Assembly: GCF_023973825.1 (NCBI RefSeq)
Contig: NW_027122924.1
Coordinates: forward strand, 269,001-333,000
Direction of reading: 5' to 3'
Length of the DNA stretch: 64,000 nt
Origin: Plasmodium brasilianum
Lineage: Eukaryota > Apicomplexa > Aconoidasida > Haemosporida > Plasmodiidae
Both the position numbers and the translations under genes were made by a program. Positions 16,588 to 61,708 of this stretch are shown piece by piece. The notes under the pieces were generated by a model that was not told the origin of the DNA, searched no databases, and saw nothing but the letters and a program-made list of their open reading frames with translations. Within the stretch, counting starts at the first letter, position 1; every line of letters starts with the position of its first letter.

Positions 16588-16618
<31 letters not shown>

Positions 16619-17891: not shown

Positions 17892-17980
17892 CATGCAGTT
17901 ACCAGGTGAGACAAGGGAGAATGCATTGGGGTGTTCATGTGCATATGGATGTATACATTTGTTCGTACGTACGTATGTAT

Positions 17981-18075: not shown

Positions 18076-18337
18076 TGTATATTTAAGTGACAATAAGAAG
18101 AATGAATTTGAGTAGTACCCCTTTAGTTATTTTTTTCCATTTAGAACACTAAAAGAATTATTAAGATTTGAAGTTATACAACTGAGCCTGTAGTGGCAAG
18201 GACGCTGATATGTAACCCGGGGTACAATGCATACGTGTAGGGGTACTATATATGCATACCAACATATATGGTACATATGTGCATGAATGCATGTTGCCTA
18301 TTAACATAGTCATAAATGAAAGGCTTAATTTTTTTTT

Positions 18338-18428
18338 TGTTTATTTGTTTGTTTGTTTGTTTGTTTGTTTGTTTGTTTGTTTGTTTGTTTGTTTGTTTGT
18401 TTGTTTGTTTGTTTGTTCATTTGTTTGT
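18338..18428. repeat. (TTTG)n microsatellite
   Basis: About 20 uninterrupted GTTT units with one CATTTG variant near the 3' end. Translation gives FVCL or NKQT repeats, which are not genes. Confidence 0.95.
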
Positions 18429-23650: not shown

Positions 23651-24028
23651 GTAAGGATGATAAATTAGTCCATTTTGGTAGGTGGGTATGAGTAAGTACA
23701 TGCTGGAAAGTTAACTTAACGGATAAGTGAGAAAGACATATATATAGAAATGTACATAAATTGTGCAATTAATCATTGGATTGCATGCTGTGTTATCATT
23801 CGTGTAAATCGTCTTATACTTATTATATTGGAAGCTTACCGAGTTGTTCCTACTGTTTATGAATTATTGCTTACGTTTCGAGATGGAAAGGTTTATAAGC
23901 TCATATGGTCTTTAAAATATGAGGAAAAATGAGCATAACGTATAGCCATGTGTAAGTTGCAATGTTATTTCTATAGGAGTTGTCTTTTTTATGTGAACTA
24001 TTTATTTTTATTTTATTTTATTTTATTT

Positions 24029-24071
<43 letters not shown>

Positions 24072-39157: not shown

Positions 39158-40003
39158 TTAATAGTCATATTTCATCTGTATCTTTCCTTTTGAATTATAA
39201 ATTTTTTCTTTTCTAATTGCTTTTACATAACATTTTACAAATTTTTTCACAGTATATAAAATAGATGCTATAAAAACTAAAAATGGTAGAAAAATGCGAA
39301 TAAATGTTGATGTAAATAAACAAAAACTTATGAATGCATACATAATCGATAGAAGAACTGGAGTACTAATTTGGGCAACCTTGCTAACTATAAACTGAAG
39401 GTTATATACATTATCATTATTTCTTCTATCATCAATGTAGAAAGCACTCATTACTTTATCCTCATACCTCTTATCATATTTCTTTAAAGTTTTACCAATA
39501 GAACTTAATAGAGTTTTTCTCTTTTTTCTTTTATATAAATTTTTTCTTGTTTGTTCATGTAACCTTTCAAAACTATTATAATTGCTATCTTCACCATCAT
39601 GATAATTATAATAATCATATTCGCTATTACCATATTTTGTTGTCAATATTCTACCCTTTAAAGACGAATTTGCATTTCCTTCTCCGCATAATGCTCTCAT
39701 AACATTTGTATCTACGTGGCAATTATTGTTGTTCTGATTATTCAATGATGAATTAAAGGCAGATGTCTACAAATTAAGAAAAATGTAGAATATAAAAAAA
39801 AAAAAAAAATTATTTACTTGATATATTAATATAGTTCCCATATTATTTAAAAAAAAAAAAGAAAAGTTATAACAAAATATTAGGGAAAATAATATATTCA
39901 TTTTTCATATTACGTTATCGAAATATTTCCACATCCATACTAAAAGGGTAAGGGTAAAAAATTTAGAAAAGATGATTTTTTTATTTGATTTTTCTATCAT
40001 CAT
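39158..40003 (-). CDS. Array copy A: small two-TM exported-type protein (fam-d-like), two exons, 232 aa
   Basis: Exon 1 is 40003-39914 (30 codons): a Lys/Asn start followed by a hydrophobic signal (FFTLTLLVWMW), with donor GTAATA. Exon 2 is 39766-39158, after acceptor ATTTGTAG, phase 0. Near the start of exon 2 is RALCGE (54-59) and, exactly 15 residues on, RILTTK (69-74); both resemble relaxed RxLxxE export motifs, but the second has Lys in the last position. An acidic Tyr/Asn-rich stretch follows, then a conserved core (SFERLHEQTRKNLYK, KKYDKRYEDKVMSAF, about 94-139) shared by all copies. Two adjacent transmembrane segments span about 166-185 and 187-203, with a basic tail after. Function unknown. 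Best described as a Plasmodium exported protein resembling P. vivax fam-d; the family name is an inference. Confidence 0.75.
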
Positions 40004-42873
40004 TTTTTTTTTTTTTTTTTAAGTTTTTATATAATAAGGGTAATATAAAAATTATGCCTACGAAAGTATTAATGTTTCTGTTTATAATTCAGTATTATTA
40101 TTTTTTATTTAAATTTTAAGAGATCTAATATTTTATCAAAACATAATATATTTTATTTATTCTTTAATTAAAAATAATTATTTTATATAAAGAAAATTTA
40201 AAGAAAATTAATAATTCAGGAAAATACATCAAAATAATATGTTTTTTACGCAAACTTTTTATACATAATATTATCAAAATAAATACTTCTTAATAACTCA
40301 AGCGATTTTAGTTCAACATAATTTAACTTAAAAAAAATGTAATTGTAATATAGAATAATAATTGTTTAATTTAAAAGCATTATATAAGTGAACAATTTAT
40401 ATATATATTTTTTTATTTTCATAGTTATTAATAAAATTTCTGTATTATTTTGTTAGTATAGGAAATTTGGTAAAATTTTAATAAAAAAATAGTAGCTTAA
40501 ATTTTTGCAAAAAAATTCATAAAAAGAAAAAAAAAAAAAATTAAATATATATCGTACATTTGGAATATTGTGGATTTTTTAAAATTTATTTAACAATATA
40601 CAACATAATTCTTCTTAAAAATATATAGATTAACAAGAAAAAGAAGAGTATTCATAATTTATGTAAACATGACGGAAAATTGAATGTGCAAATTTCGAAA
40701 ATATATGAATTTAACAACTTGTTTAAAATTATAAACACAAAAAAATAATTTATCGATTAAATTTTATATATTCTCTTATTTATTATATATTAATAGATAT
40801 CAATTGCAGTTCTATTTTTACTAAAAATTTTTAAATAAAAAAAAAAAAAAAAATTATGCTTTCATATATAGTATACAATTATGTGTACAAGTAATACATA
40901 AAATTGTATTATTTAATATTATGTATAAATGAAAATATATTAAAGCTAAAAATTGGTACAAATCAAAATATTTTTATTTCATAAATATCCTCCATATTTT
41001 GTTTAAAGAGAAGAAAAGAATGTGTAATAAATTATAAATAGGAATAATATAAAAAAGATAAAAAAAAAAAAATAATAAAATAAAGGTAACAGTTTTAATG
41101 TACAAATAGGATTAAAGCATATACAGGAATTATAATTTTACAAAAAAAAAAAAAAAAAAAAAGAAAAGATAAGATAAGAAAGTGTTCATATAAAATTACT
41201 AATTTTAAAAATGATTTGTGAATTATTATTAGTGTGAGCTTTAAAAATAAGTATGTATTAAAGGATATCGTAGCACTTTGTTTTATATATATATATATAT
41301 ATGTATATTTTGTGTTACAGAATAAATCTTTTTTAATATTTTATTTTGTTTTATCATATAAATTATTTATAAAATCCCCCAATATGGTACATAAAATATG
41401 AAGTGTATTTTCTAATTATGCCACCTTTATTATAAATCATGGAAATGAAATTTTTTAATTCGTTTCACAAGTTTCTACTTAACATAATGAATTGTAAATT
41501 GCAGCTGAAATAAATATCACATATATTTTTTTATCATATATATATATACATAAAATAAAATAGGCGCAAGATATATCAGAAAATATATCTAAAAAAATAG
41601 TATATAATAATTGTATTGCCTACGAATAATTAGTTTAATAAAAAAAAAAAAAAAAAGACCCATCCACAGATATTTGAAAAAAAAATTGTTCATATAAAAA
41701 ATTTTTTATCCAAACATTGTTTTGTATATATTATTATTTAAATAAAATTAATTTTATTTTATCATTTTTCTTAAAAACTTGTCCATAAACATATATATGT
41801 GGTTTTCCATTTAAAACGTTTTGAAGTACTTCTGTTTTAAATTGTGCTGGAGTAGTACAGTTAAAAAACTACAAGATATTTATGATGTTTATATATACAT
41901 ATGTGCATATATATGTATGAAAAACTTATATGGAGTATATACATTATATATTTCAAATAATAAACTACTTCATAATATATTTTTTGTAAGCGTGTTTGAA
42001 CGTGCATTTGAAAATATTTTTTTTATAATGTCTGTATTGCTTTTCATCAATTTACTAGAAATTGTAGATATATTTGAGCATTATTTAATCATAATAATAG
42101 TAATAACAATAATAATTACAATAGTAATAATAATAATTTTGTCCTTTTATATTTACTAATTGTGCATAAATAAGGTAATCTATAATATTATGATATATAG
42201 TAGTTTGCGGTTATAGTATTATTACAGGTAAAATTTGAACATAAAATATTTAAATTTACTGTTGCTTTAATATAATACATTTTATCTTCATATGTATGAA
42301 ATACAAATAATTTAAAGAACGTTTACAAAATATTTTACACAGATTATATTATAAAATTTTATTAGTCATAATATATTATATTATATATTGGTATTAGATA
42401 ATATATTAAAAGCCTGAAAGTTGAGCACAGTTCATCAATAAGTCAGTCGACCAGTCAGTGAATGATTCATTTGCTTACATAATTTTAGGGTAACTTCCTT
42501 TTTCTGAAAGGTATGACTGTTTATTTATTTTTATGGCATACACATATAATGTATGTATAAATGATTTTCAAAAAAGAAAATTACTGAAAACAAATAATAT
42601 TTTCGACACAATTATGTAAGTATGAATAATTAAAACAAATAAAAGTAATGTATGTAATATATATTGAATACTTTAATTAGACTATATATAAAATTATATA
42701 ACAAATTATTTTTTAAGATAAAATATTGAAAATAATATAATTCGAGTATTTTTTTTACACACATGCATAATATAATACATGCAACGTACACTATAGAATG
42801 CATGAAATTGTGAGAATAATCTATTATCTTATTCAAAATTTATGAATTATGTGTGTACTTTTTATCGTATAAG
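40004..42873. other. Array intergenic region A/B
   Basis: No gene supported. A plus-strand frame at 41821-42159 ends in an Ile/Val microsatellite translation; counterparts in other units are broken, so it is not called. The TAATAATAGTAATAAC tract lies at about 42086-42138. Confidence 0.6.
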
Positions 42874-43709
42874 TTAAAAATATTTCTCCTTTATATTTCC
42901 TTTTAAATTATATTTTTTTCCATTGCTACTTCCTTTTAAATAACATTTTACCAATTTTTTCACAGTGTATATAAGTGCTACTGTAAAAACTATAAAAAGT
43001 ATCACTACACGTAAATATGTTTCTGTAAAGTACGAAAAACTTACTATAAAGTACACAAAAGCTGCAAGAGATGGAGCAATAACTTTTTAAATGTGCTTAG
43101 CTGCAGATGAACAATTATTTGAACCACTCATAAATTCATTATCATTAATGTAAAGCGCATTCATTACACTTTCCTCATACTTTTTATCAAATTTCTTTAA
43201 AGGTTTACCAGTAGAATTTAGTAGCGATTTTTTATTTTTTCCTTTATATATATTTTTTTCTGCTTGATCATGTAACCTTTCAAAACTATTATAACTGTTA
43301 TCATGAACATAATAATAACTATCAAATATATTATAGTCAGATTCTGTTTCCAATATTCTACTCTTTAATGACGAATTTTCATTTCCTTCTCTGAATAATA
43401 TTCTCTTAATTTTTGTGTCTAAATGGTAATTATCGATGCTTTGATTATCCAATAATGAACGAAAAGTTTTTGACTAAATATTAAGAAAAATGTAGAAGAT
43501 TAAAAAAAAAAAAAAAATTATTTACTTTATATACTAATGTAATTCTTATTTTATTTAAAAAAAAAAAAAAATGCATAACAAAATATTAGGAGAAATATTA
43601 AATTTAATTTTTATATTACCTGATCGAAATATTACCATGTCCATACTAAAAGGGTAAATGTAAAAAATTTAATAGAAAACGATTTATTATTGAATTTTCC
43701 TACAATCAT
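42874..43709 (-). pseudogene. Array copy B: fam-d-like gene with one nonsense codon in each exon
   Basis: Exon 1 (43709-43620) and exon 2 (43473-42874) align with copies A and C and keep normal splice signals (GTAATA donor, ATATTTAG acceptor). Exon 1 has TAA at 43634-43632 in the segment WTW-stop-YFDQ, where copy A has Lys and copies C and D have Gln. Exon 2 has TAA at 43089-43087 (AAKHI-stop-KVIAPSL), where copy C has NIFKVISPVL. Apart from these two stops the frame is intact to its natural end at 42874. Twin motifs are RILFRE and RILETE at the array's standard 15-residue spacing. The two C-terminal membrane segments and a basic tail remain recognisable. A nonfunctional copy is the simplest reading. 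Confidence 0.75.
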
Positions 43710-45499
43710 TTTTTTTTTTTTTTTTTTTTTTGAAAGTTGCTATATTATTAATGTAATAAAAAGAATTTTGTTTATAAAAGTTTTTCTTTAAAATTCAGTA
43801 GTAATATTGTTTATGTATATAATTTAAAGAGCTCAAAAAAAGTTTTATCAAAATTTAAAATAGTTTTTATTGTTTAATTTTAAATATAAAATTATTTTAT
43901 ATAAGTTAAAGTAATAACCCAGTATATGTATTAAAAGATAATGTTTTTATGCAAACATTTTATAGAACAATACTAACAAAACACATACTCCCTTGCATTT
44001 TTATATGACGTGGTTTTAGTTCAATATAATTTAACTTCAAAAAAAAAAAAAAAATTATATTATCAATATAATAATTGTATAATTTAAACACATTATTAAC
44101 ATTTTATTTATATATATTTTGTATTTACATAATTAGTATTAAATTTTGACTTTATTTTTTTAGACATACGAATTTGTATAAAATTTAAATAAAAAAATAT
44201 TACCTTAAAAATTTCCATAATATATTATGAAAAAATAGGGAAAAAATGAAAAAACTTAATTTATTTATTATAACAAAAACAATATCGACTTTTTATAATT
44301 TATTATCGTTATGTATGTATTTTAAAAAAAAAAAAAATATTATATGTTAACAATGAGAAAACGAATTTATAGAACATGTATTATGCATGATTTAAAATCC
44401 TAATAATGAACTTGCATTAAATAAATATAGCAATACCATATCTTTAAAATTGTTAATAATGAATGTTTACAATAAGATATAGATTAAATTTTTTTTTTTA
44501 TGTTCTTGTTTATAGTTTATTAATACGTATAATTAATTCTAGCTGTATCTTTTTTAACAGCATTTAAATAAGAATATGCTCTCATAAATATGTCTTATGC
44601 ACTTAGGTAAGAAGTAATATGCATAATATTATATTAATTAAAATTATTTATAATATTAAAAAAAATACATGAAAACTATAAATTAGAACAGGATAAAATA
44701 TTTTTATTTTGAAAATAAATTATTCATATTTTGTTCTAAGTAAAAACAAGAAAAAGCAACTAACAATTTATGAATAGTTCGTAATATAATAAAGATGAAA
44801 TAAAGAAAAAATCTAATAAAAATATATTTTATTTTGAAAATAGATTTATCCAAGTTTAAGAATTATAATATGACAACAACAAAAAAAAAAAAAAAAAAAT
44901 GAATATTAAAAGAAATCCTAATATGTCATATATATATTATATATTACGGAAATTTATTTTTTTTAATATTTCATTTTGTTTTATTATATAAATCACATTT
45001 CAAATTCCCAAAAAGGTATATAACTATGAAAAGTATTTTTATATAGTACAACCACATAAATAAATATATAAATAAATATATATATATATATATAATATAT
45101 TTGTTTTTTTGCTATTTCTTAGATAATGCTAAATTGTAATTTATTATTTTATTTAATGCATAATTTACATAGTCTTACATTAAATGTATAATTTTCAAGG
45201 AACTATATGTTTTTTAAAGATTTTCTGCTCATATGCATTTATCAGATTTATCTTTTTTTATAATTACATTAACATATACTTGAATATATCGACTAAATAT
45301 ATCATTTATCTTAATTATTCTTTTTGTATCTTATAACGTCAAATTGTTCTGTTTGATTAGGTGCCTTATAATTTATTATAATTGATTAATCAATAATTTA
45401 TTATTAGCACATATGTTAGGAAATATATTAAAAAAAAGTAAATAAAAATAGTGGAACTTCGACATGTAACAATGAGAATATATATTCATATATATGTAC

Positions 45500-45544
<45 letters not shown>

Positions 45545-46483
45545 AAAAACTTATATACATTAAATATTTCAAAATATAGATTCTTTCATCTTATTTTTTT
45601 TTACGAAGATACTTGAACATATATTAGAAGATATTATTTTACACTGACTATAATCCTTTTAATCAATTTGTAAAAAATTGTGAAGTATTTGAGCATTATT
45701 TAATTATAATAATAGTAATAACAATAATATTTTACCATAGTAATGATAATATTAATTTTGTATATTTATATTTAATAATTGTACGTAAATATGGTAACCT
45801 ATAATATTATGATATATAGTACTGTGTATTAATGATATGATTACGGGTACATTATGAGAATGAAATTTTAAAATTTACTGTTTCTTCAATATAATACATT
45901 TTATCTTCTTACGTACGAAATACAAATAGGATATAAATGTTTACAAATAATTTAGACAAATTCCATTATCAACTTTTATTAGTTCTAACATAATATATTA
46001 TATTATGTTATATTATATATTAGTATTATATTACATAATATATTAAAGGATTATAAATTAAGCACAATCAATCAATCGGTGAACGATATATTTGCTTATA
46101 TATTTTTAAGGAACCTATTTTTTTTTTTAAAGGTATGATATTTATTTATTTTCGTGGGATACAGATATAATGTATGTATAAATAATTTAAAAAAAAAAAA
46201 ATAATTGTTCAAAAAGAATTATTTTTTCGTCAAAATTATTTAAATATAAATAATTTGAGGAAACAAAAATAATGTATATAATATACTTTGAATTCGTAAA
46301 TTAGGTGATATATAAAATCATACGACAAATTATTTTTTAGGACAAAATAATGAAAAAAAAAAGAATTCAAGTATTATTTTTATACTTACATAATATACAC
46401 TACAGAATAAATGAATTTTTAACAAAATTCCATTATCTTATTCAAAATATACGAATTGATGAGTGTTACCTTTATCACATCAG
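43710..46483. other. Array intergenic region B/C
   Basis: Homologous to the other array spacers. It carries a (TA)n tract at about 45502-45535 and a degraded version of the microsatellite block at about 45690-45740. No gene seen. Confidence 0.6.
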
Positions 46484-47318
46484 TTAAAAATATTTTTTCT
46501 CTAGCCTTTTTTTTAACATATATTTTTTTTCATTGCTAAGGGTTTTAATATAACATTTTGCTATTTTTTTTAGAGTATAAACAACTGTAAATATAAAAAC
46601 CATAAATGATATCACTAAAAGGATAGGTATTGATGAAAAATATATACAACTTGTAATGAAGTATACAAGTACTGCAAGTACAGGAGAAATAACTTTAAAA
46701 ATATTACTAGCTACAGATGAAAAGTCATTTGAAACGCTTATAAATCCTATATTATTACTGAAAAACGCATCCATTACATCTTCCTCATACTGTTTATCAT
46801 ATTTCTTAAGAGTTTTTACTATAGAATTTAATAGAGATTTTTTATTTTTTTTTTTATATATGTATATTCCTTCACGTTTATATAACTCTTTAAAATCGTT
46901 ATAATTATTAGTATAATCATCATAATAATTAACATATGGTCTATAATAATATTCTGTTTCCAATATTTTACCATTTAATAACGAATTTTCATTTGATTCT
47001 CCGCGTAATATTTTCATAATTCTTTTGTCTAAATGGTAATTATCATTATTTTGATTACCTAATGATGAACCAAAGGCAGTTGACTAAAAATTAAGAAAAA
47101 TGTAGAAGATTAAAAAAAAAAAAAAAATTATTTACTTCAAACATTAATATATTTCATATTTTATTTAAAAAGAAATATAATACATAATAACAAAGAATTA
47201 AGAAAAATATTAACTTTAATATTTATATTACCTGATCGAAAAATTGCCACGTCCATACTAAAAGGGTAAATGTAAAATATTTAAAAAATAAGTTTTTGTT
47301 ATTTGATTTTTCTACCAT
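46484..47318 (-). CDS. Array copy C: small two-TM exported-type protein (fam-d-like), two exons, 228 aa
   Basis: Exon 1 is 47318-47232 (29 codons): MVEKSNNK start and hydrophobic FTFTLLVWTW, donor GTAATA. Exon 2 is 47083-46484, after acceptor ATTTTTAG, phase 0. In this copy both export-like motifs have Lys in place of Arg: KILRGE (53-58) and KILETE (68-73), which should abolish plasmepsin V recognition if Arg is essential, as it is in known PEXELs. The conserved core (NDFKELYKREGIYIYKKKN, KKYDKQYEEDVMDAF) and two C-terminal transmembrane segments with the tail KKIAKCYIKTLSNEKKYM are intact. So the reading frame survives but export may not. Function unknown; family assignment as for copy A. 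Confidence 0.75.
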
Positions 47319-48523
47319 TATTTTATTATTTTTTTTTTTTTTAAAGTTAATTTTTAATAAATGTAATAAAAAAAATATGTCTACAAAATAATTTGATCAA
47401 CATTCCATAGTATAATTTTTTATTTATATTCTAAGAGCTATAACGTTTTATTAAAATATAAGGTATTATACATATATTTTAATAAAAATTATTATTTTAT
47501 ATAAGAACAAGTAATAATAAGTGAATTTACATTAAATAAAAATCTTTTACATAAGCGTTTTACACATCAATATTAACAAAAGGTATACTTTTAATAACTG
47601 ACCTGATTTTAGTGCAACATAATATAACATAAAAAAAAAATATAATTACAACAAATAATAATTGTATAATTTAAAAGCAATACGTATATCAACAATATAT
47701 ATGTATATGTATTTTTCATTTACATAATTATTAATAAATTTTTCTCATCATTTTATTAGGTGTTTATGAATTCGGTAAAATTTAAATAAAAAAAGAGTAG
47801 CTTAAAAATTTGAATAAAAATCTATGGATAAAAAAGAAGAACGAAAAGAAAAACATAATTCATATAGGAATAGAGTACAAATGTTGTATAATTTATAATG
47901 CTTACTTGATAAGTTACAATTTAATTCTTTTTAAAAATATATATATTATCAATTAGAAAAATAATGTATGCAACATATACACGTGATAGAAAGATGTATG
48001 CATGAACATTGAACATACATGAATTTATTAATATATTTAAAATTTTAAACACAGAATAATAATTTATAGATTAAATTTTATGTACACGCTTATTTATTAT
48101 ATACTAATATATATTAATTGCAGTTTTATTTTTATCAGAATTTTTTAAAAAAGAGTATCCACTTATGTATTGCATACACCTAATTATACAGTGATATATA
48201 TTATTCTATTGATATTCTGTAATCATAAAAATAAATTTAAACTAAAAATTAAAATACGGTAAAATATTTTTATTTTACAAATACATTATTTTGTTCTAAC
48301 AGTAGAAAAGAAGCAATAAAATATTAATAGGAATAATAAAGATGAAAAAAAAATAAAAATAACAATTTTATTCTGTGAATCGAATTAAGACATCATGAAA
48401 TTAAATTAAAAAAAAAAAGGAATAAGTGCAAATAAAATTACTATTTTTAAAACTATTGTATTAAAATATTTTAAGGATATTCCTTAAAAATCATTTAATA
48501 TTAAAGGAAATCCTGACAAAATG

Positions 48524-48566
<43 letters not shown>

Positions 48567-49473
48567 TTATGTATTGTGGTTATTTATCTTTTTTAATATA
48601 TTATTTGGTTTTATTTTATAAATTAATTATAAAATTTATTGAATTGGTACGAAATATGAGGAGTATTCTTTTATAATATCATGTATGTATACATATATAT
48701 ATATAAGTTAAAAATATGAGAATTAATTTTTTATTTTATTTCACAAGTTCCATCTTTCATAGTGGATTATAAAAATAACACATATATTTAAAACAACTAT
48801 ATATAAAAAATAAAACAGGTACAAATAGAAATTAAAATGTTTTTAACAAAATAGCATATATAACAAAAATATTGTTTATGGATATCTATTTTGATAAGAA
48901 AAAAAAAAATATCCATCCGTAAATATTTGAAAAAAAAAATTAACTATTTAAAATTTTATATCCAAATATTGATTTGGTAAATTATCATTTAAATAAAGTT
49001 AATTTTATTTTATCATTCTGTTTGAATACTTGTCCTTAAAAGTATATATACGTCTTCGCATTAAAAAAGTTTTGAAGTTCTGCTTCATATTGTGATTGAA
49101 TAGTACATTTTAATAAGTACGAGATTTTTATGATATACATATATATGTATATATATAATAATCTTTGTTATTAGTTTATAAATAAATGATACTTTTGTAT
49201 TTTTTTTTAAACTATTTTCTAAAGGCAGTTTTATCATTATCTATGATTGAAGTTTGGGGAATATTTGGATTTTCATTTTTGATTTTCAGAAATAACGGTT
49301 CATTTAAAGCATACGTTTATTTATTTTACTTAAGAGAAGGATATATAACTAAGGAAATGTTTCCGTTTTGTAAATTCTTTTAACTATATATATGTTTCAA
49401 ATTTAAAGGTATTTTCATAGGCTTATCAATTTAATCATTGAAATAATTTATATATACACACATATCTATATCT

Positions 49474-49522
<49 letters not shown>

Positions 49523-51088
49523 ATTTTTTTAGTACAGCTAGATTATAATTTATTATAATATTTAATGAATAGTTTATATAAACATATATTAAATATATTA
49601 TTTTCACGGTACGATGCGTTTTTGAAAAAATTTCTGTTTATTAGAATTATTGGCATTACGATTTTTCAAATAAAATAGTTTTCTAACTATGTTTACAATA
49701 TATATATGAATATCTCAACTGATCTACTCCACTTATCGAAGGTGTTCTTTTAATTTTTTATAATATCATATTGCTGTTTTTATTATGTGAATTTCGATTT
49801 ATTTTAATTGATAAACTATGAATTTATTATTAGTGCATATATTGAGAAATTTATATAAAATAAAATAAAATATAAGTGCTGGAATCTTAGTATTTAACCT
49901 TGAGTATATATATGTATGAAAAATTGATAAACAGTATATACACCAAATACTTCATTATAAGGACACTATCTTGCTATTTTTTTTGATAAAGATGTTTGAA
50001 CATACATTTGCATATGTTTACTTCCCGTAACCGTAATATTTTTCAGCATTTAATTAAAAAATGCGATATATTTGAGAATTGTTTAATAATAATAGTAATA
50101 GTATTAATAATAATAGTAATAGTATTAATAATAATAGTAATAGTAATAGTATTAATAATAATAGTAACAGTATTAATAATAATAGTAATAGTATTAATAA
50201 TAATAGTAATAGTATTAATAATAATATTAATAGTATTAATAATAATAGTAACAGTATTAATAATAATAGTAATAGTATTAATAATAATAATAATAATAGT
50301 AATAATAATAATAATAGTAATAATAATAATAATAATAGTAATGATAATAATTTTGTCCTTTTAGATTTGCTAAATTTGAAAAAATATTATAATCATTAAA
50401 AATATGATCAATAGTACTATAAGGTTCTAGTATTATTACGCGTGAATAGTAAACATAAAATATGTAAATTTAATGTTTTATTAATATAATACGTTATATC
50501 ATCATACGTATGAAAAACAAATAAGATATGGAATAATTACAGACAGTCTAAAAAAATTCTAATATAAAATTTTATTAGTTTTATTATACGATAGTATATT
50601 ATATTATGTATTTGTATTATATTTCAAAATACACTGAAAATCGAAAAGTTGAGTACAATCAATCAATTATTTATTGAATGTTCCATTAGTTTATTTATTT
50701 TTAAGGAATGTATCCTTTTTTAAAGGTATTATGTTGATTTATTTTAGTGGAATACCTATACAATGCATGGGTATATTGTTTAAAAAAAAAAATAATTGTT
50801 CAAAAACAATCATTTTCTCATGACAATTATTTATGTAGGAATAATTTGAATATATAAAAATAATGTATTCTAATATATTTTGAATACTTAAATTAGGCTG
50901 CATATAAAATCATAGAATAATTCACTTTTTAAGATAAAATATTGAAAAATATATAATTCGAGTATTTTTTTTATACACACAAAATATAATTCATATAACA
51001 TATGCTAAAGAATAAATGAAGTTTTCAGAAAATTTTATGATCTTATTCAAAATTTATGAAATAGTGAGTGTTATTTTTATCGCATAAG
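47319..51088. other. Array intergenic region C/D
   Basis: No gene supported. It holds (TA)n at about 48528-48562 and 49495-49516, a CTATATCTATATCT repeat (49465-49495), and the largest AAT/AGT microsatellite of the array (50083-50352). A 65-codon plus frame at 49186-49383 has homologous DNA at 53830 and 58700, where the frame is broken, so it is not called. Confidence 0.6.
50083..50352. repeat. Expanded AATAATAGTAAT trinucleotide microsatellite
   Basis: About 90 trinucleotides, AAT with AGT and ATT interruptions that form longer periods (TAATAGTATTAATAA). It occupies the same position as short TAATAATAGTAATA tracts in the other array spacers. It yields poly-Asn/Ser and Ile/Val frames that are artefacts. 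Confidence 0.95.
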
Positions 51089-51926
51089 TTAAAAATATTC
51101 CTTCTCTAGCCTTTTTATTAACATATATTTTTTTTCATCGCTTAGTCCTTTAACATAACATTTGGCTATTTTTTTCAGAGTATATACTACTGTTACTATA
51201 AAAAATAAAAGTGGTATCACTATACAAAAAAATGGCGATGAAAATAACTGACTACTTAGAATAAAGTACATAAACCCTACTAGAATTGGAGTAATAACTT
51301 TAAAAAAATTCTTAGCAACATATAAAAAATTTTCTTTGCCTCTTAAAAATTCTTTATCATTTCTGAAAAATGTATTCATTACATATTTCTCATACTGTTT
51401 GTCATATTTCGTAAAACCTGTAACAGTAGATTTTAATAATGATTTTTTATTTCCTCTCCTATATAAATTTATTCTTGCCTGATTATATAACGCTTCAAAA
51501 TCAATATAATCGCTATCAAAATTATCATAATTATAATTATATAGACTAAAATCATCTTCTGATGCTAATATTCTACCTTTTAATGATGAATTTACATTTC
51601 TCTCTATACGTAATGATCTTATAATATTTGTATCTAAATGGCAGCCATTGTTACACTGATTATCTAATGATGAACCAAAGACAGTTAACTAAAAATTAAG
51701 AATATTTAAAAGACTTAAAAGGAAAAAATTATGTACTTTATATATTAATATAGTTCTTGTTCTATTGAAAAAGAAAAAAAATTATACATAATAACTAAAA
51801 AATTAAGGAAATTATTAACTTGAATTTTCATATTACCTGATCAAAATATTGCCACGTACATACTGAAAGAGTAAATGTAAAATAATTAAAAAAAAAGTTT
51901 TTATTATTTAATTTTTCGACTATCAT
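51089..51926 (-). CDS. Array copy D: small two-TM exported-type protein (fam-d-like), two exons, 229 aa
   Basis: Exon 1 is 51926-51837 (30 codons): MIVEKLNNK then FTFTLSVCTW, donor GTAATA. Exon 2 is 51688-51089, after acceptor ATTTTTAG, phase 0, with no stop. The first ATG inside exon 2 is far downstream (51379), so an ATG-based scan misses the first 103 codons. Twin motifs RSLRIE (54-59) and RILASE (69-74) both keep Arg, Leu and Glu, the best RxLxxE pair in the array. The conserved core (FEALYNQARINLYRR, TKYDKQYEKYVMNTF) and the membrane pair with tail KKIAKCYVKGLSDEKKYM close the protein. Function unknown; expected to be exported if relaxed motifs work here. Confidence 0.75.
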
Positions 51927-54900
51927 TATCTTTTTTTTTTTTTAAAGTTGCTATTTAATAAATATAATAAAAAATATATGTCTACAAATGTTTTTGATTA
52001 ATATTTAATAGTATTGCATTTTATTTATAATTTAAGAGCTAGAACATTTTATCAAAATATACGATAGTTTATATATTCTTTAATTAAAAATAATTATATT
52101 ATATAAGCACTAGTAATAATCATAGAAATTACATTAAATATAAATGTTTCACGTAAACGTTTTACACATCAATATAAACACTACTCATACATTTTATAAC
52201 TGACACGATTTTAGTTGAACATAATTTAATATTAAAAAAATATAATTACATCATATAATGGGTTTATTATTTGAAAACACTATATGTCAAAAATTTATAT
52301 ACATATTTTTTATTTACATAATTGTTAATAAAATTTTCATATTATTTTATAGTATAGAAATTTGATAAAATTTATATAAAAAAAGAGTAGCTTAAAATTT
52401 TACATAAAAATTTACTGAAAAAAAAAGATAAAGAAAAAAGTTTAATTCTTATAAGTACAGAGTACTAACATTGTGGTTTTTTTAAAATTTTATAATCACA
52501 AATTAAAATATAAATCTTTTTAAAAATATATAGATCAACAATAAGAAAAAGATTGTATTTAACATATAAACGTGCTAGAAAGTTCTAAGAGTGAACATTG
52601 AAAAAATATGAATTTAATAATATACTTAAAATTATAAGCGCAAAATAATAATTTATAGATCATATTACATTTATTATTATATTTATAGATTAACAGTTAT
52701 TATTAATTTCAGTTTTATTTTTATTAAAAAATTTTAAATAAGGGTATCACCTTATAAATTGTATACACTTAAGTATACAGTAATTCATAAAATTCTATTA
52801 ATTAATATTATATGCATAATAAAAATATATTAAAACTAAAAATTAGAACAAATTCATATATTATTATTTATTGAAACTAAAAATTAGAACAAATTCATAT
52901 ATTATTATTTTATAAATATCCTTACTTTGTTCTGAGAAAAGAAAAAAAGAAGCAACAAAATATAAATAGTAATAATGAAAAAAAAAAAAAAAAAAAAAAA
53001 GCAAGGTAGCAATTAATTTTATTCTGCAAATAGAATTAAGCCATATTTAGAAATTATAATTTAAAAAAAAAAAAGAAAAGCAAAAGTTCAAATAAAATTA
53101 CTAAGTTTAAAACTATTATATTAAAATATTACTAGGGTATACTTTAAAAATCATTGAATATTAAAGAATATCCTAACAATATGTTTTATACATATGTATT
53201 TTATGTATTACAGTTATATTTTTTAATATATTATTTTGTTTTATTATATAGATTAATTATATAATTCAATGAATGAGTATGGAATATGAGAAGTATTTTA
53301 TTATAATATTATATATATATATAACTTAAAAACATGCGAATGAAATTTTTATTTTATTTAACAAGCTTCAACAATATATGGTGAATTATAAATTGCATTT
53401 GAAAAAAATTACATATATATATTATTTCATCTATATGAAAAAAATAAAATGGGCACAGATAGAACTGTATATATTTCTAAAAAAACAGAATATATAACAA
53501 AAATATTGTCTACGAATATCTATTTTGATATGAAAATAAAATACCCATCGGCACATATTTAAAAAAAAGAATTGGCTATTTAGAACATTTCTTATGCCAA
53601 CCTTTCTTTGTATACAATATTATTTAAATAAAATTTATTTTATTTTATCTTTTTGTTTAAATACTTGTTCATAAACATATATATGGGGTTTTGCATTAAA
53701 AATGTTTAAGTTCTTCTGTTTCATATTGTTCAGTAGTACGTTAAGTACAAGATTTTTATGATATAAATATATATGTATATATAATCGTTGCTGTTATGTG
53801 ACTATAATTAAATAAACTTTTTATATATATATTTTTTTAAATATTTTCTAAAGGCGGTTTTACCATTTTCTATAAGTTGAAGTTTGGGAAATATTTGAGT
53901 TTATATTTTTGGTTTTCAGAAGAAACAGGTCATTTAAAACATACGTTTATTAATCTTTCTTAATAGAAGAATGTGCAAGCAACTAAGGGAAAGCTTCGGT
54001 CTTGTAAATTCTTTTAACTATATATGTTTTAAATTTAAAGGTATTTTCATAGGCTTATCAATTTAATCATTGAAATTATATACATACACACATATATATA
54101 TTTTTTTTTTCAATTTTTTTATTAGAGATATATTATAATTTATTATAATATTTAATAAATAATTTATATAAACATATATTAAATATATTATTTTGGAAGA
54201 ACTATGCGTTTTTAAAAAAATTTCTGTTTATAAGCATCAATTAATTTCGTATAAATAGATTTTCCAACTATATTAATATATATGTGAATATCTCGACCAA
54301 ATTATTCCATTTATCTAAGTTATTCTTTTTAAATTTTATAAGAACATATTGTATTGTTTTATTATGTGAACTAATATTTAATGTAAATGTCAAATAATGA
54401 ATTTATTTTTAGTACATATATTTGGAAATATAATAAAAAAGAGAAATATATAATATTAGTGCAACTTCGATGTGGAACATCGGATATATATATATATATA
54501 TATATGTATGAAAAAATAATAAACCAGATATATATTTAAAATTTCAAAATATGGATACTTTCTTCCTATTGTTATTGACAAAGATGTTTGAACATATATT
54601 TGCAGATATTTGTTTACAATGATCATAACACATTTCATCAATTTATTTGATATTGTGATATATTTTCTCATTATTTAATAATAATTATAGTAATAATAAT
54701 AATTTTGTCCGTTGCGATTTGCATAATTTAAATAATTATGAAAATCCATAAAAATATGATAAATAGTATTAAAAGGTACTGGTATTATTACGAATATATT
54801 GTAAACATAAAATATTTAAATTTACTGTTTCTTTAATATAATACATTTTATCTTCATATATATGAAATATAAGTTAGTTATAAATGTTTAAATATAATTT

Positions 54901-55300
54901 AGGTAAATTCTATTATCAAATTATATTACTTTTATTATAATATATTATATTATATATTAGTGATATAGCTTATAATATATTAAATGTTTAAAAGTTGAAC
55001 ACATTCAAACAATCATTGGTTAAAGATAACGTCTTATATGTTACATGGTATTTTGCGTTTTATTTTTTTGAAAAAAATAAAGCGAAGTGAAGAATTTTTT
55101 TTCCTTAGTAAATCTTTTATTGTATATTAAAATCAATAAACATATAATAACAAATTACTGTTTTCGTATTAAGCCTTTTTTAATACTAAATATTTTTTTA
55201 AGTTATATATAATTATACGCCGTTTAATTAGTCCATATTTTAATTAATATAATTTGTATGCTTCTATGGAAGAATTTTTTGTAAAATGATGAATATATAT

Positions 55301-55352
<52 letters not shown>

Positions 55353-55465
55353 TTAACAATATCATAATTACAATTACTAAGTTGAAATCCACTATTAGAT
55401 TAAGTGTTCTAAAATTTTTCGAGTGTTACCTTACTTTTTTTTAATTATGCATTCACCTTCTTTTA

Positions 55466-55512
<47 letters not shown>

Positions 55513-56079
55513 TTTTTTTTTCTTTTTTTTTTATATATTTATTTTTAGCCTCTTATGGCTTACCTTTATCGGAAAAATTATTTTTTATTTCTTGTTATAA
55601 AAAAAGAGTGTTACAGTAGCTTATACAATCTTAAGAAAATGTACCTTTTTTTAAAAGGAATAGGTTTCAACTAGATTCGTGCTACATGGAAATAAATTAA
55701 TGCGTACAAAAAATTTAAAAAGAACGTACAAAAGTAAAAAAAAAAAAATTGTTCTTAAAAATGTATTTCCTTCTAACATTTACTAATTATAAGTAATTTA
55801 AACATATTGGTGTGTTGTATAAATTACTCTGGATATTTTTATTAGGCGGAATAATAATATAATATTACAAATTATTTTTTGAGACAAAATGATGAACAAA
55901 ATAAATTTCGAGAATCTTTTTGAACTTACAAAACTTAATACATATAAAGCACACCATAGAATACGTGATATTTCAAGAATATTCGATTTTCTATTTTAAA
56001 ATTAATGAATTGTGGGTGTAATTTTTATCATATAAAATTAATAAAATTCAACCTTCTTTTCATTTAAATTATTATTTTT
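51927..56079. other. Array intergenic region D/E
   Basis: No gene supported. It includes a duplicated ACTAAAAATTAGAACAAATTC segment (about 52827-52908), the block at 54500-54780 nearly identical to 59360-59640, and long (TA)n tracts at 55306-55347 and 55468-55506. The last about 100 bases belong to a conserved 3' tract shared with copy F. Confidence 0.6.
55306..55347. repeat. (TA)n microsatellite
   Basis: About 20 uninterrupted TA units; a second similar tract lies at 55468-55506. Confidence 0.95.
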
Positions 56080-56866
56080 CTAATTATTAGATCTTTTAGA
56101 ATAACAATTTCTCCATTTTTCTCAAGTGTAAATAATGTATCACAAAAAAATTAGAGATGATACCTCTAAACGAGTAATTTGTTCTTCTAGAATAACCAAG
56201 GACAATAGAATAATGATAATGAACGCTAACAAAAATGGAGGAGAAAATATAAGAATACTAACTAAAGGTGAAGAAATGTTTCTACTTCTTACATGTCCAT
56301 CATTACAGCTTACTAAGCTCATTATAATTTCCTCATGCTTTTTATCATATTTCTTAAAACATTTAACAATAGAATTTAAAAACGATTTTTCATTTTTAGC
56401 TTTATATATATTTATTTCTGCATTTTCATGTAACCATTCGAAGTTATTATAATTATTTGTATCATAATAATAATTTCCATATACTATAAAACAATATTTT
56501 GTTGTCAATATTCAACACTTTTATAACGAATTTTTATTTTTTTCTCTACATAATGTTCTAATAACTCTTGTGTCTAAATGGAAATTATTGTTGTTTTAAT
56601 TATCCAATAATGGAAAAAAAGGCAGTTAAATAAAAATTAAGAAAAATATTGAAGATTTAAAAGGAAAAAATGATATACTTCAAAAATTAATATAATTCCT
56701 ATTTTATTGAAAGAAAAAAAAAAAAAAAAATACGTAATAACAAAAAATTAGGGAGAATATAAAATTATTTTTTTATAGTATATAATAGAAAAATTGCCAC
56801 ATTCATACCAAAGCGATAAATGTAAAATATTATAGAAAAAAAGGATTATTATTTGTTTTTTTAAAA
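56080..56866 (-). pseudogene. Array copy E: heavily broken fam-d-like gene
   Basis: Most of exon 2 aligns with copy F but is broken many times. The acceptor AG is AT (base 56630), one base is inserted after the T run, and in-frame stops occur at 56598-56596, 56523-56521, 56514-56512, 56142-56140 and 56124-56122. The TGA at 56514 replaces the Arg of the second export-like motif (stop-ILTTK). The exon 1 remnant (about 56866-56793) has no clear start ATG and no donor, and contains stops within the former signal (FFL-stop-YFTFIALV-stop). The core (FEWLHENAEINIYKAK, KKYDKKHEEIIMSL) and the E/F-type tail (EKWRNCYSKRSNN) are still readable. It is non-functional. Confidence 0.85.
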
Positions 56867-59800
56867 ATTTCTATATAATTCAAGTAATCAAAAAATTTGC
56901 TCACAAAAGATTTTCTCTAATATTCGTTGTATTGTTTATGTATTTTTTTTTTGAAATCTAGAATATTTTATATTTTTAAATTAAATGTATTTAAGTTATG
57001 TTAGTAAAAGTAATAATCCAAGAGAATGCATTAAATAGAATGTGTTAGGTAAAGATTTTATAAAGCAATGTTAATAAAAGATGTACTTTTTACAAATGTC
57101 GTTATTTCGGTTGAACATAATTTAAACATTAAAAAAAATATAATTATATATATCATATAATAATTATATAATTTAAAAGCATTGTGAACAATTTATATAT
57201 ATATATCTTTATTTACATAAATGATAATAAAATTTCACGTTAATTTATTGGGGGTATAAGAATTCTGGTAAAATTTAAATTAAAAAAGTTGTATGTTAAA
57301 ATTTTTAATAACAATTTATGAAAAAAAAGAAAATATAAGGGAAAAAATTTAATTCATTCATTAGGGTAGAAACGATTTAAGCTTTTAAAAATTTATTAAC
57401 ACAACTTATAGCATACATTTTTTTAAAAGTATATGTATGTTATCTACGACAGAAGGAACGTATGGAACTTGTAAGAACGATGGAAAATTGTAATCGTAAA
57501 TTTTGAATATAATAATACGTTTAAAATTTTAAATAATAAATATTAATGACAAGTTATATATTATACTTCTTTTTTTGTTCTCCTAATTATAGTTTACTAG
57601 AAATTATTAGTTGTATTTTAAAAAAAAAATAATTTATGTAAGATTATACTCTCCTATGCATTGTATTCACTTAAGAATACAGTAATACATAAAAATGTAT
57701 TAATTAATAGTATATATATAATAATAATATATTAAAGCTAAAAATTGGAAAAAGGTAAAATATTTTTATATTATAAATATCCTTCTTATTTTGTTCTAAA
57801 AGAAGTAAAGAAAGAACAAGTAAAAACATATATATAGGCATATAAATAAAGATAAAAAGGAGAGAGAGAAAAAAAAGATGACAACTAATTTTATTATGAT
57901 AATGGAATTAAGACTTAATCTGGAGATATAATTTTACAAAAAAATAAAAAAGAGGAAAATGTGCAAATAAAATTGCTAATTTTAAAACTGTTATGTAGAA
58001 TATTATACGTGCACTTCAAAAACAAAAAAGATGGATACTAAAAGAAACTTTAAGAATATGTTTTGTATATATAATATATATAACTGTATTTTAGTTTTTT
58101 TAATGTATTATTTTATTTCATTATATAAATTAATTATAAAACGTTTTACAGTGGTGCGGAATATGAAGAGAATTTTTTCATAATATATATATATATGACT
58201 TAAAATCATCTGTTTGAAAATTTTATTTAGTTCAGTGAATTTCATCTACATATGGTAGATTATAAATAGTAGTTGAAAAAGATAACACTCACAATTTTAT
58301 TTTATTTATATATATAAAATAATAGGCACAAATAATATTGAAAATATTACTAACAAAAGAGCATATAGTAATAATACTGTCTACAAATATTTATTTTATA
58401 GAAAAAAAAATTATCCATCCTCAGATATTTGACAAAAAAATTGACTGTTTAAAAAATTTTATATTCTAACAAGGTTTTGTATATATTACCATTTAAATAA
58501 AATTAATTTTACTTTATCATTTTGTTTGAAAACTTGTTTATAAAATCTATTTACATTATTTTCCTTTTAAAATATTTCGAAGTTTTTATGTTTCATATTG
58601 TAATGGAATAATATAATATATAGAAGATTTTTATGATGTATACATGTATGTATATAATCGCTTCTTCTATTAAACTATAATTAAATGCACCAGTAATATT
58701 TTTTTTTTTAAAAAAATACATTCTAAAGGTATTTTTACTATTTCCTAATATTAAAGTTTAGGTAATATTTGAGTTTTCTTTTTTGATTTGCAGAAATAGC
58801 AGGTTATTAAAAATATAAGTACATTTATTTTACATAGGTTAGGAATGTATATATAACTAAGGATATGTTTATATCTTGTAAATTTTTTAAACTAAATATA
58901 TTTTAAATTTAAAGAAATTTTTATAGGTTTATCGATTTATTAATTGTAATTATATATATACATGTATATATTTTGCTATTTTTTTAATAATGCTAAATTA
59001 AAATTTTTAAAAATAGTTCATAAATATTACGTATTAACTTATATTAAATATATTATTTACTTCGAACTATCCGATCTTGTGAGAATTTTTGTTTAAATGC
59101 ATTTATGTGCATATTATGATATTTTATATAAGAAGGTTATATAATTCTATTGAAATATATATAAATAACTCAACCAAATTATTTTATTTGTAGTAGTTAT
59201 TCTTTTTATATTTTTCAACATAATATTGTTGTTTTATTAAGTGCACATTTATTACTTACAATTAACTAACCATGAATTTATTACTAGTGCATATATTGAG
59301 AAATATAATAAAAAAAAAATAAATAAAAATAATGGAACCTTAACATGTAACCTTGAGCATATATATGTATGAAAAAATAATAAACAACATATATATTTAA
59401 AATTTCAAAATATGGATACTTTCCTTTTAATGTTATTGACAAAGATGTTTGAACATATATTTGAAGATATTTGTTTACAATGATCTTAACACTTTTCATC
59501 AATTTATTTGATATTGTGATATATTTTCTCATTATTTAATAATAATTATAGTAATAATAATAATTTTGTCCTTTTCGATTTGCTTAATTTAAATAATTAT
59601 GAAAATCCATAAAAATATGATATATAGTAATATAAGGTACTAGTATTATTATGGGTATATTGTGAGCAGGAAATATTTAAATATACTGTTTCTTTAATAT
59701 AATACTATTTTTCTTCAAATGTATGAAATACGAATCCATTATAGAATATTTACAAATTAGACAAAATATATTATCAAATTACATTAGTTTTATTATAATA

Positions 59801-60927
59801 TATTATATTTTACTGATATATCTTGTTTTATATTAAAAACCTAAAAGTTGAGCAAAATCATTCAGTCATTAGTTAAAAATAATGTCTTATATATTTCTTG
59901 ACATTTTGCGTTTTTTTTTTTTGAAAAAAATAAAGCAAAGGGGAGAATTTTATTTTATTTTATTTTTTGTATATATAATTATTTGATCTATATTTGTTTT
60001 TTCTGTTTTTTTTTTCCTTAGTATATCTTTTATTATATATTAAAATTATTATACATATAATAACTCATTATTATTTTTATATCATTCCTTTCGTGATAAT
60101 AAATATTTTTTTATGTTATATATAGTTATTCTTCCTAAAAAAATTCCGTAATTTAATTAATATGCAGCATATCCTTGTATAGAAGAATATTTTGTAGCAT
60201 GATATATATATATATATAATATAATATTATATTATTATAATTTTATCTTAATTAACATTATTATGAGGTAGGAATTTATTATTAGACTGAGCATTTTGAA
60301 ATTTTAGTAGAGTTTCCTTCCTTTTTTTTTTTTTTTTTATTATTCATTTACTCTAATTTATTCATATATATAAATATATATATTTTTATTTATTTATTTT
60401 TACCCTTTTGTGGCATGCCTTTACGGAAAAACTCTTTATGTTTTATTTAAAAAAAAAGGTGTTGCATTAAATTATGTATTCTCAAGATAATATACTTTTT
60501 TTTAAAGGAATGCGTTTCAATTAAATTAGTGGCATGCGAATATAAAATAATGTTTTGAAGAAATTTAAAAAAACTTACAAAATTAAAAAAAAATAATGAA
60601 TTGTTCCAGGAAATACTTTTTATTCTAACAATTACTAATTACGAATAATGTAAACAAATAATTGTAATGCACATATTTTGGATACTTAAATTAAGTAGCA
60701 TATAATAGTATACAACAAATTATTTTATAAGATAGAATGATGAAAAAAATAAAATTTGAACATTTTTTTAAACTTACAAAACTTAATACATATAAAGTAT
60801 AATACAGAACGCATGAAATTTCAGGAATATTCGATTTTCTACCTTAAAATTAATGAATTGTGGGTGTAATTTTTATCATATAAAATTAATAAAATTCAAC
60901 CTTCTTTTCATTTAAATTATTATTTTT
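56867..60927. other. Array intergenic region E/F
   Basis: No gene supported. Closely related to spacer D/E: the 59360-59640 block and the segment around 59880-59960 match 54500-54780 and 55020-55100. The final about 100 bases before 60927 are nearly identical to those 3' of copy E. Confidence 0.6.
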
Positions 60928-61708
60928 CTAATTATTAGATCTTTTAGAATAACAGTTTCTCCATTTCTTCCAAGTGTAAACGAATGATAATAAAAAAAAT
61001 ACAAATGATAACCCTAAGCGGGTAGATTTTTCAACGGGAATCACGATAGAACATAAAATAATGAAAATGAACGCTAACATAATTGGAGCAGAAATTATAA
61101 GAATACTAACTAAAGGAGAAGAATTATTTTTACTTCTTCCATGTCCATCATTACGGCTTAATACCTTCATTACACTTTCTTCATACGTTTTATCACATTT
61201 ATTAAAGCATTTAACAATAGATTTTAATAACGATTTTTCATTTTTGGATTTATACATATTTTTACCTGCCATTGCATGTAACCCTTCAAAGTTATTATAA
61301 TTGTTACCATCATTATAATAATTATCATATATATTATAATCATATTCTGTTACCAATATTCTACTCTTTAATGACAAGTTTTTATTTTTCTCTGCGTATA
61401 ATGTTCTCATAATATTTACATCTAAGTGGTAATTATTGTTGTTTTGATTATCCAATAGTGAAAAAAAGGAAGTTGACTAAAGATTAAGAAAAATGCAGAA
61501 GATTAAAAAAAAAAAAAAAGAATTATTTACTTTATAAATTAATGTAATTCTTACTTTATTTAAAAAAAAAAAATGCATAACAAAAAATTTGGGAAAATAT
61601 TAAATTTAATTTTTATATTACATGATCGAACAATTGCCACATCCATACTAAAAGGGTAAATGCAAATGATTTAATTAAAAAGGGTTTATTATCCATTTTA
61701 TTGATCAT
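60928..61708 (-). CDS. Array copy F: small exported-type protein (fam-d-like, E/F subtype), two exons, 204 aa
   Basis: Exon 1 is 61708-61622 (29 codons): MINKMDNKPF then hydrophobic SFAFTLLVWMW, donor GTAATA. Exon 2 is 61476-60928, after acceptor ATCTTTAG, phase 0. An ATG four codons in would also serve as a start. Twin RxLxxE motifs are complete: RTLYAE (53-58) and RILVTE (68-73). The conserved core (NFEGLHAMAGKNMYK, KCDKTYEESVMKVL) is present. The C-terminal part differs from copies A-D: a membrane pair (ILIISAPIMLAFIFIIL, SFVFFLLSFVY) and a shorter tail, KKWRNCYSKRSNN, seen elsewhere only in pseudogene E. This is the intact member of the E/F subtype. Function unknown; family as for copy A. 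Confidence 0.75.

What the first reader, a model, noticed from the sequence alone, without database searches (positions are those of the whole stretch)
39158..61708. Two RxLxxE motifs at an invariant 15-residue spacing in every array protein
Counting from the exon 2 splice site, all six copies have a motif at residues 24-29 (A RALCGE, B RILFRE, C KILRGE, D RSLRIE, E RTLCRE, F RTLYAE) and another at 39-44 (A RILTTK, B RILETE, C KILETE, D RILASE, E stop-ILTTK, F RILVTE). None is a canonical PEXEL (RxLxE/Q/D), but RxLxxE has been described as a relaxed PEXEL in some exported proteins such as RESA. Conservation of spacing through strong sequence drift suggests selection on a duplicated signal or a dual cleavage site. 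Copy C has Lys for Arg in both motifs.
Basis: partly seen in the sequence, partly recalled or inferred. Interest (0 to 1): 0.75.

Follow-up and report, generated by a model that had tools for sequence, protein, structure and literature searches.

The report
Malaria export tag, probably single
A row of six related malaria-parasite genes (two of them broken) keeps one slightly unusual version of the parasite's known protein-export tag; the second look-alike tag noticed 15 residues on is most likely inherited family sequence and not a second export signal, so the find is largely ordinary.

Summary
The six genes are a diverged tandem subfamily of Pv-fam-d-type proteins in what is almost certainly a Plasmodium brasilianum (P. 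malariae group) subtelomere. Motif 1 (exon-2 residues 24-29) reads [RK]xLxxE in 6 of 6 copies. It sits where 18 of 21 aligned P. malariae-group paralogues carry RxLxx[EQD] (often RLLYGE) and where the neighbouring gene carries canonical RILYE. It is best read as one relaxed PEXEL, a described variant. Motif 2 (39-44) is weaker than claimed: [RK]xLxxE in 4 of 6 copies (copy A, intact, ends in Lys; broken copy E has a stop in place of Arg). None of the 21 paralogues has it 8-30 residues after motif 1. It aligns with the family's LKxRI block, whose next residue but one after Arg is Leu in 0 of 10 other-species pieces. The constant spacing needs no special selection: the readable copies have no indel in their first 53 residues. 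Two PEXELs in one protein are already in print (CSP, PbMLFK). Intact copy C has Lys for Arg in both motifs and is predicted to be poorly cleaved. Dual cleavage is not excluded but has no positive support beyond the motif itself.

The parts
39158..39766 (-). Copy A exon 2 with stop, intact; exon 1 39914-40003
   Evidence: database protein P0003 is 100% identical over all of this exon
39680..39697 (-). Copy A motif 1 RALCGE
39635..39652 (-). Copy A motif 2 RILTTK (does not match RxLxxE)
43087..43473 (-). Copy B exon 2 up to its in-frame stop; pseudogene (exon 1 also has a stop)
43387..43404 (-). Copy B motif 1 RILFRE
43342..43359 (-). Copy B motif 2 RILETE
46484..47083 (-). Copy C exon 2 with stop, intact; exon 1 47232-47318
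46997..47014 (-). Copy C motif 1 KILRGE (Lys for Arg)
46952..46969 (-). Copy C motif 2 KILETE (Lys for Arg)
51089..51688 (-). Copy D exon 2 with stop, intact; exon 1 ends at 51837
   Evidence: database proteins P0001 (MKS88_000062) and P0002
51602..51619 (-). Copy D motif 1 RSLRIE
51557..51574 (-). Copy D motif 2 RILASE
56497..56559 (-). Copy E (pseudogene, several stops): motif 1 RTLCRE at 56542-56559; a stop codon at 56512-56514 stands where motif 2 Arg would be
60928..61476 (-). Copy F exon 2 with stop; open, but ends 17 residues before C and D; exon 1 61622-61708
61390..61407 (-). Copy F motif 1 RTLYAE
61345..61362 (-). Copy F motif 2 RILVTE
34557..36053 (-). Neighbouring gene, exon 2 (498 aa): canonical PEXEL RILYE at residues 24-28 of exon 2 (35970-35984), no second motif in its first 110 residues

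Best explanation
Each intact copy makes a small two-exon protein: a recessed signal sequence in exon 1, one relaxed PEXEL (motif 1, [RK]xLxxE) 24 residues into exon 2, a short spacer of low model confidence (probably flexible), a variable middle and a C-terminal helical domain, probably with two membrane spans (inferred; no membrane-span program was run). Inferred mechanism: plasmepsin V cuts after the motif 1 Leu in the ER, and the new N-terminus plus the spacer hand the protein to PTEX for export into the red cell. Motif 2 lies in that spacer. It is most likely what is left, after a roughly five-residue deletion and drift, of the Pv-fam-d family's conserved LKxRI block: its Arg-Ile match that block and its Leu and Glu are array-specific. 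It need not be a second cut site. Shown here: gene anatomy, family relationship, motif 1 conservation, absence of motif 2 in the relatives aligned. Inferred: cleavage, export and the role of the spacer.
For: Motif 1: 6 of 6 array copies [RK]xLxxE; 18 of 21 aligned P. malariae-group paralogues RxLxx[EQD] at the homologous column, 19 of 21 counting Lys; the neighbouring gene has RILYE at the same residue of exon 2. The gap from the most hydrophobic stretch to the motif is 31 in P0002 (P. malariae twin of copy D), against 28-35 in five P. malariae-group relatives; PMC4740378 (passages) gives PEXEL 15-30 residues after the signal sequence. RxLxxE is described as a relaxed PEXEL in RESA-type proteins and LISP2 (passages of PMC1431722, PMC11252984, PMC8016102). 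Motif 2: 0 of 21 paralogues have it 8-30 residues downstream. Profile comparison of the N-terminal pieces, realigned by hhalign, places array SLKGRI on the family LK block with a five-residue gap; 0 of 100 column shuffles reach the score against either of two profiles. Other-species pieces have Arg at the motif 2 Arg column in 9 of 10, and Leu two residues on in 0 of 10. The C-terminal domains are homologous (hhalign 96.5%).
Against: Motif 2 as a six-residue block is well conserved inside the array (mean BLOSUM 3.05 against 2.47 for the first 110 columns, and above 1.72 for the whole motif 1 block), and four of five readable copies matching there is marginally more than column shuffles give (3.3%). 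In the array's own-group paralogues the motif 2 Arg column is Arg in only 2 of 21 (Lys in 11) and the next column is Ile in only 2 of 21, so 'inherited Arg-Ile' rests on the other-species sequences. Motif 1 is not universal in the wider family: in other species 3 of 10 pieces are RxLxx[EQD], 2 of 10 canonical, 5 of 10 neither, including two P. ovale proteins with no PEXEL-like site. Four of 10 other-species pieces have a Lys-type [RK]xLxx[EQD] match 22-23 residues after motif 1, which I read as chance. The structure model has pLDDT below 50 over residues 27-92, so it says nothing about the fold of motif 2.
Confidence: 0.8

Rival explanations
1. Tandem PEXEL: both motifs are plasmepsin V sites, used redundantly or one after the other, and the 15-residue spacing is selected.
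For: Both motifs have R/K-x-L in all five readable copies, and an acid at position 6 in 5 of 5 (motif 1) and 4 of 5 (motif 2). [quoted passage not shown] DNA identity at a lag of 45 bases is above the median of other lags in B, C and F.
Against: Motif 2 is absent in 21 of 21 paralogues; intact copy A ends motif 2 in Lys. Motif 2 lies 15 residues beyond motif 1, which is itself 31 residues past the hydrophobic stretch in P0002; PMC4740378 quotes 15-30 residues from the signal sequence, a slightly different measure. Lag-45 DNA identity is at the median in D and below it in A, and is the top lag only in C.
Confidence: 0.06
2. Motif 2 is kept because the 13 or so residues after the PEXEL must hold hydrophobic residues for HSP101/PTEX to grip, so Leu36, Ile40 and Leu41 are selected as spacer, not as a cleavage site.
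For: PMC10952997 (abstract and passages): a 13-residue spacer with four hydrophobic residues supported export and their mutation reduced it. The array has 3-5 VILMFWY in that stretch, the 20 paralogue loci 2-5.
Against: No control for composition was run, and the count does not single out the array; it does not by itself explain Arg39 or Glu44.
Confidence: 0.3
3. Motif 1 is not a working export signal either; the proteins stay in the parasite or vacuole, and both motifs are leftovers in a decaying array.
For: Two of six copies are pseudogenes and F is shortened; copy C has Lys for Arg, a change that both P. falciparum and P. vivax plasmepsin V cut poorly (PMC4077696 passages); processing by plasmepsin V does not always mean export (PMC10900883, start of abstract and passages).
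Against: Four copies have open frames, and motif 1 Leu26 and Glu29 are unchanged in all five readable copies while positions 25, 27 and 28 vary freely.
Confidence: 0.1

Closest known systems
Relaxed PEXEL RxLxxE of RESA-type proteins and LISP2
   Same: Same spacing of Arg, Leu and acid; for the RESA type, a recessed signal sequence; the two-exon, phase 0 layout is the usual one for PEXEL genes (PMC1431722 passages)
   Different: Copy C has Lys for Arg; cleavage here is untested
Pv-fam-d / Plasmodium exported protein, unknown function (P. vivax, P. malariae, P. inui, P. fragile, P. cynomolgi, P. ovale)
   Same: UniRef calls the P. malariae twins of D and F (P0002, P0004) Pv-fam-d; homologous C-terminal domain (shown against the P. 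malariae-group paralogues), N-terminal LKxRI block and motif 1 position
   Different: Array copies are about 200-230 residues and lack the NEDDxxFGxRLN stretch seen in other-species members and the five residues before LK; genome searches with copies A and D gave strong matches only at this locus
fam-l / fam-m (PF12420)
   Same: Weak PF12420 match on copy A (27 bits, cut-off 34); R-x-L early in the second exon
   Different: Below the curated cut-off; the eight fam-l/m-type loci looked at read R-x-L-x-K
Two-PEXEL proteins CSP and PbMLFK
   Same: Two PEXEL-like motifs in one protein
   Different: There both motifs were shown to work in an assay; here the second is missing from the relatives aligned and from one intact copy

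Membership tests
Relaxed PEXEL | RxLxx[EQD] at a set distance after the signal sequence | tested here: met
   Motif 1 strict in 5 of 6 copies (C has Lys); gap 31 in P0002 against 28-35 in five P. malariae-group relatives
Relaxed PEXEL | Signal sequence in exon 1, motif early in exon 2, phase 0 intron | tested here: met
   P0002; expected pattern in PMC1431722. Signal sequence judged by hydrophobicity, no signal-peptide program was available
Relaxed PEXEL | Cleavage after Leu by plasmepsin V | not testable with these tools
   Needs peptide assay or mass spectrometry
Tandem PEXEL (second site, motif 2) | Motif present in all intact copies | tested here: not met
   Intact copy A reads RILTTK
Tandem PEXEL (second site, motif 2) | Conserved in paralogues and orthologues | tested here: not met
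   0 of 21 P. malariae-group paralogues; in other species Leu at the homologous third position in 0 of 10 pieces. The nearly identical P. malariae twins of the copies do keep it
Tandem PEXEL (second site, motif 2) | Cut by plasmepsin V | not testable with these tools
   Not measured
Pv-fam-d type exported proteins | Sequence homology to named members | tested here: met
Pv-fam-d type exported proteins | Full N-terminal block LKxRIxxLLxEDDxxFGxRLN | tested here: not met
   Only the LKxRI part is recognisable in the array; several P. malariae-group paralogues lack the block too. Hence 'diverged subfamily'
fam-l / fam-m (PF12420) | PF12420 above its curated cut-off | tested here: not met
   27 bits against 34 for A; no match for the exon 2 of C, D, F or the piece of E. 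The protein database lists PF12420 for P0002 and P0003
Exported proteins | Presence in the infected red cell | not testable with these tools
   No expression or localisation data were looked for

The most novel reading that the evidence does not exclude
The array is evolving a second plasmepsin V site out of an inherited spacer helix, so that some copies are cut twice in succession, 15 residues apart, giving two alternative mature N-termini with different export behaviour.
Probability: 0.05. Interest if true: 0.55.

Novelty: new member of a known kind. Interest (0 to 1): 0.2.

Why it matters
It settles which of the two motifs is worth testing first. It also shows that the relaxed RxLxx[EQD] form dominates among the Pv-fam-d-type genes aligned here from the P. 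malariae group (18 of 21); PMC1431722 states that ExportPred, as published, did not model this form, so such genes may be under-called as exported. Copy C, with Lys in both motifs, is a natural test of how strict the Arg requirement is.

Tried and rejected
Duplication of motif 1 as the origin of motif 2: DNA identity at a lag of 45 bases against the median of lags 30-60 is A 0.23/0.29, B 0.43/0.31, C 0.42/0.34, D 0.33/0.33, F 0.40/0.34; it is the top lag only in C, so not consistently raised; no shuffle control was run. Structure: AlphaFold2 model of P0002, mean pLDDT 60.6, residues 27-92 below 50; too weak for a fold search, none run. Spacer hydrophobicity as a distinguishing feature: the array does not differ from paralogues. 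PF12420 as a family label: below cut-off. Selection tests (dN/dS) were not run; I expected silent sites to be saturated at about 42% protein identity. P. malariae against P. brasilianum copies were set aside as nearly identical by eye.

Rows dropped before the counts: of 53 matches, 30 were made loci and 19 used, plus L058 and one P. malariae protein (P0011), making 21. The other 11 loci were left out because the N-terminus was broken, missing or outside the long open frame, L059 and L060 (full of stops) and L061 were left out, L061 although its N-terminus can be read. Three dropped loci show the site: L048 RILKGE (fits), L054 ISLHGQ (does not), L061 RSLCLA (does not); with them motif 1 is 19 of 24 strict. 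L037/L040 and L043/L044/L047 look like near-copies and are counted separately; L040, L044 and L047 were left out of the profile (17 of 20 loci used). The second profile, called other species, held ten other-species pieces and P0011. Other-species sequences: eight proteins cut into ten pieces.
Full report
Place. The window is bases 269001-333000 of contig C17 of a 31.37 Mb genome in 43 contigs. The database protein that matches copy D over all of exon 2, MKS88_000062 of Plasmodium brasilianum (P0001), lies on a contig of 393,469 bases, the length of C17, so the window is almost certainly from that P. brasilianum assembly. P. malariae twins exist for A (P0003), D (P0002), F (P0004) and part of B (P0007); a piece of C (P0005) has no named source but sits on a contig as long as that of P0002. 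Names given by the sources include 'Plasmodium exported protein, unknown function', 'Pv-fam-d protein' and 'hypothetical protein'.

Anatomy. Six copies lie on the minus strand, exon 2 starts about 3.6-5.0 kb apart (the start of E is approximate). Exon 1 codes a recessed hydrophobic signal sequence and ends in frame (phase 0); exon 2 carries the rest. A, C and D are intact; F is open but ends 17 residues before C and D; B and E have in-frame stops. The database model of F (P0004) joins the exons from an earlier donor. Searches of the whole genome with copies D and A gave strong matches for these six alone; the others were weak, at E 4.8e-5 or worse (all 16 and 22 first-look candidates were scored, but a first look can miss).

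The observation. Motif 1 is [RK]xLxxE in 6 of 6 copies, with Arg in 5. Motif 2 is [RK]xLxxE in 4 of 6, with Arg in 3; intact copy A has RILTTK and copy E a stop codon in place of Arg. The spacing is 15 in all. The first 53 columns of the array alignment (five readable copies) have no gap, so constant spacing is expected without a constraint on spacing. In column shuffles a place as good as motif 2 appears outside motif 1 in 3.3% of trials over the 110-column stretch and in 0.3% within columns 30-55. Because the pattern was picked after the fact, I call that marginal. The three key columns of motif 1 rank 8th of 97 such column triplets for conservation and those of motif 2 rank 21st; as whole six-column blocks motif 1 ranks 77th and motif 2 34th of 94 (which prints ranks counted from zero).

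Relatives in the same group. A relative found with copy D (L016) was used to search the genome, giving 53 matches. Of those with a readable N-terminus, 21 were aligned with the array (20 loci, one of them, and one P. malariae protein). At the motif 1 column 18 of 21 are RxLxx[EQD] (two of these also canonical), one more has Lys for Arg, and two do not fit (RLLYGK, RLLYRT). None of 21 has [RK]xLxx[EQD] 8-30 residues further on. At the place where motif 2 should be, those that keep the block read like LKEKAMKIV, LKKNALKIV or LREQLMGML; the motif 2 Arg column is Arg in 2 of 21 and Lys in 11.

Relatives in other species. Eight Pv-fam-d proteins of P. vivax, P. inui, P. fragile, P. cynomolgi and P. 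ovale, cut into ten pieces, show RxLxx[EQD] in 3, canonical RxLx[EQD] in 2 and neither in 5. Their conserved block reads LKKRINNLLNEDD and the like. Arg stands at the array's motif 2 Arg column in 9 of 10, and Leu two residues on in none. Four of ten have a Lys-type [RK]xLxx[EQD] string 22-23 residues after motif 1, within that block (KILLDE, KKLLDE, KTLLDE, KVLLDE). Over all 36 aligned N-terminal pieces the pattern occurs 44 times in 4640 residues; 27 of these are motif 1, so it also turns up elsewhere.

Alignment check. Because the joint alignment could force the match, the N-terminal pieces were compared again as profiles. hhalign aligned array motif 1 with family motif 1 and array SLKGRI with the family LK block across a five-residue gap, with scores of 23.0 (17 own-genome loci) and 25.0 (ten other-species pieces and P0011) against maxima of 16.2 and 16.0 in 100 column shuffles each. 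The pieces had been cut around motif 1 using the joint alignment, and the match probabilities themselves are modest (41% and 56%). The C-terminal domains of the array and of nine paralogues match with 96.5% probability.

The neighbour. The next gene in the window (34557-36053, minus strand) has an acceptor site at 36053 and RILYE, a canonical PEXEL, at residues 24-28 of exon 2, with no other [RK]xLx(x)[EQD] string in its first 110 residues. Residue 24 of exon 2 thus looks like the usual PEXEL place here.

Mechanism. The simplest account is a single relaxed PEXEL. PMC4740378 (passages) puts PEXEL 15-30 residues after the signal sequence and finds co-translational cutting. In P0002 the gap from the most hydrophobic 11-residue stretch to motif 1 is 31, and 28-35 in five P. 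malariae-group relatives; motif 2 would be 15 further. RxLxxE as a relaxed PEXEL is in PMC1431722, PMC11252984 and PMC8016102 (passages). Plasmepsin V of P. falciparum and P. vivax cuts Arg-to-Lys peptides poorly (PMC4077696, passages), so intact copy C is predicted to be poorly processed; against this, PbMLFK motifs starting with Lys were reported active in an export assay (PMC5172157, passages). Lys at P2' strongly reduced cutting of two test peptides (PMC10952997, abstract and passages); that is one residue earlier than the Lys of copy A motif 2, so it is suggestive only. The stretch after motif 1 would serve as the PTEX spacer; its hydrophobic content is like that of the paralogues.

Known or new. 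Paired PEXELs are in print for CSP and PbMLFK, and rodent LISP2 has several. A search for papers holding both 'Pv-fam-d' and 'PEXEL' found two; in the one I looked into (PMC3747859, passages) no passage shown discusses a relaxed PEXEL in Pv-fam-d. PMC2850316 was seen only as a listing. So the family and the motif type are known; the array is a diverged set of members, and I found no support for a new dual signal beyond the motif itself.

Noticed in passing
L001-L008 (fam-l/fam-m type loci of the same genome): All eight loci looked at (the best PF12420 matches) read R-x-L-x-K, for example YRLLAKCK or YRLLAKYK, at the PEXEL-like site: a basic residue where the acid should be. Published test peptides with Lys there are cut poorly (PMC10952997), so how these large families are exported looks worth a check.
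   Followed up: no
window 36082-36310: An 18-base tandem repeat, 12.7 copies at 98% match, lies just upstream of exon 2 of the neighbouring gene, apparently in its intron.
   Followed up: no
window 11431-27127, plus strand: Four open frames there match the PRESAN (PHIST) family, bits 84-122; the R-x-L strings at their starts differ.
   Followed up: no
P0021, P0022 (P. ovale Pv-fam-d): The homologous site reads GLFKGG or GLFKEG, so the PEXEL seems lost while the following block is kept.
   Followed up: no
L045 (C17:350167-350925, about 17 kb beyond the window end): A Pv-fam-d type paralogue with RILIGE (MKS88_000064, P0009) lies on the same contig near the array.
   Followed up: partly
copy C, 46952-47014: Both motifs start with Lys (AAA) in an otherwise intact copy; a database protein piece of the same gene (P0005, source not named) has Lys in both too.
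   Followed up: partly
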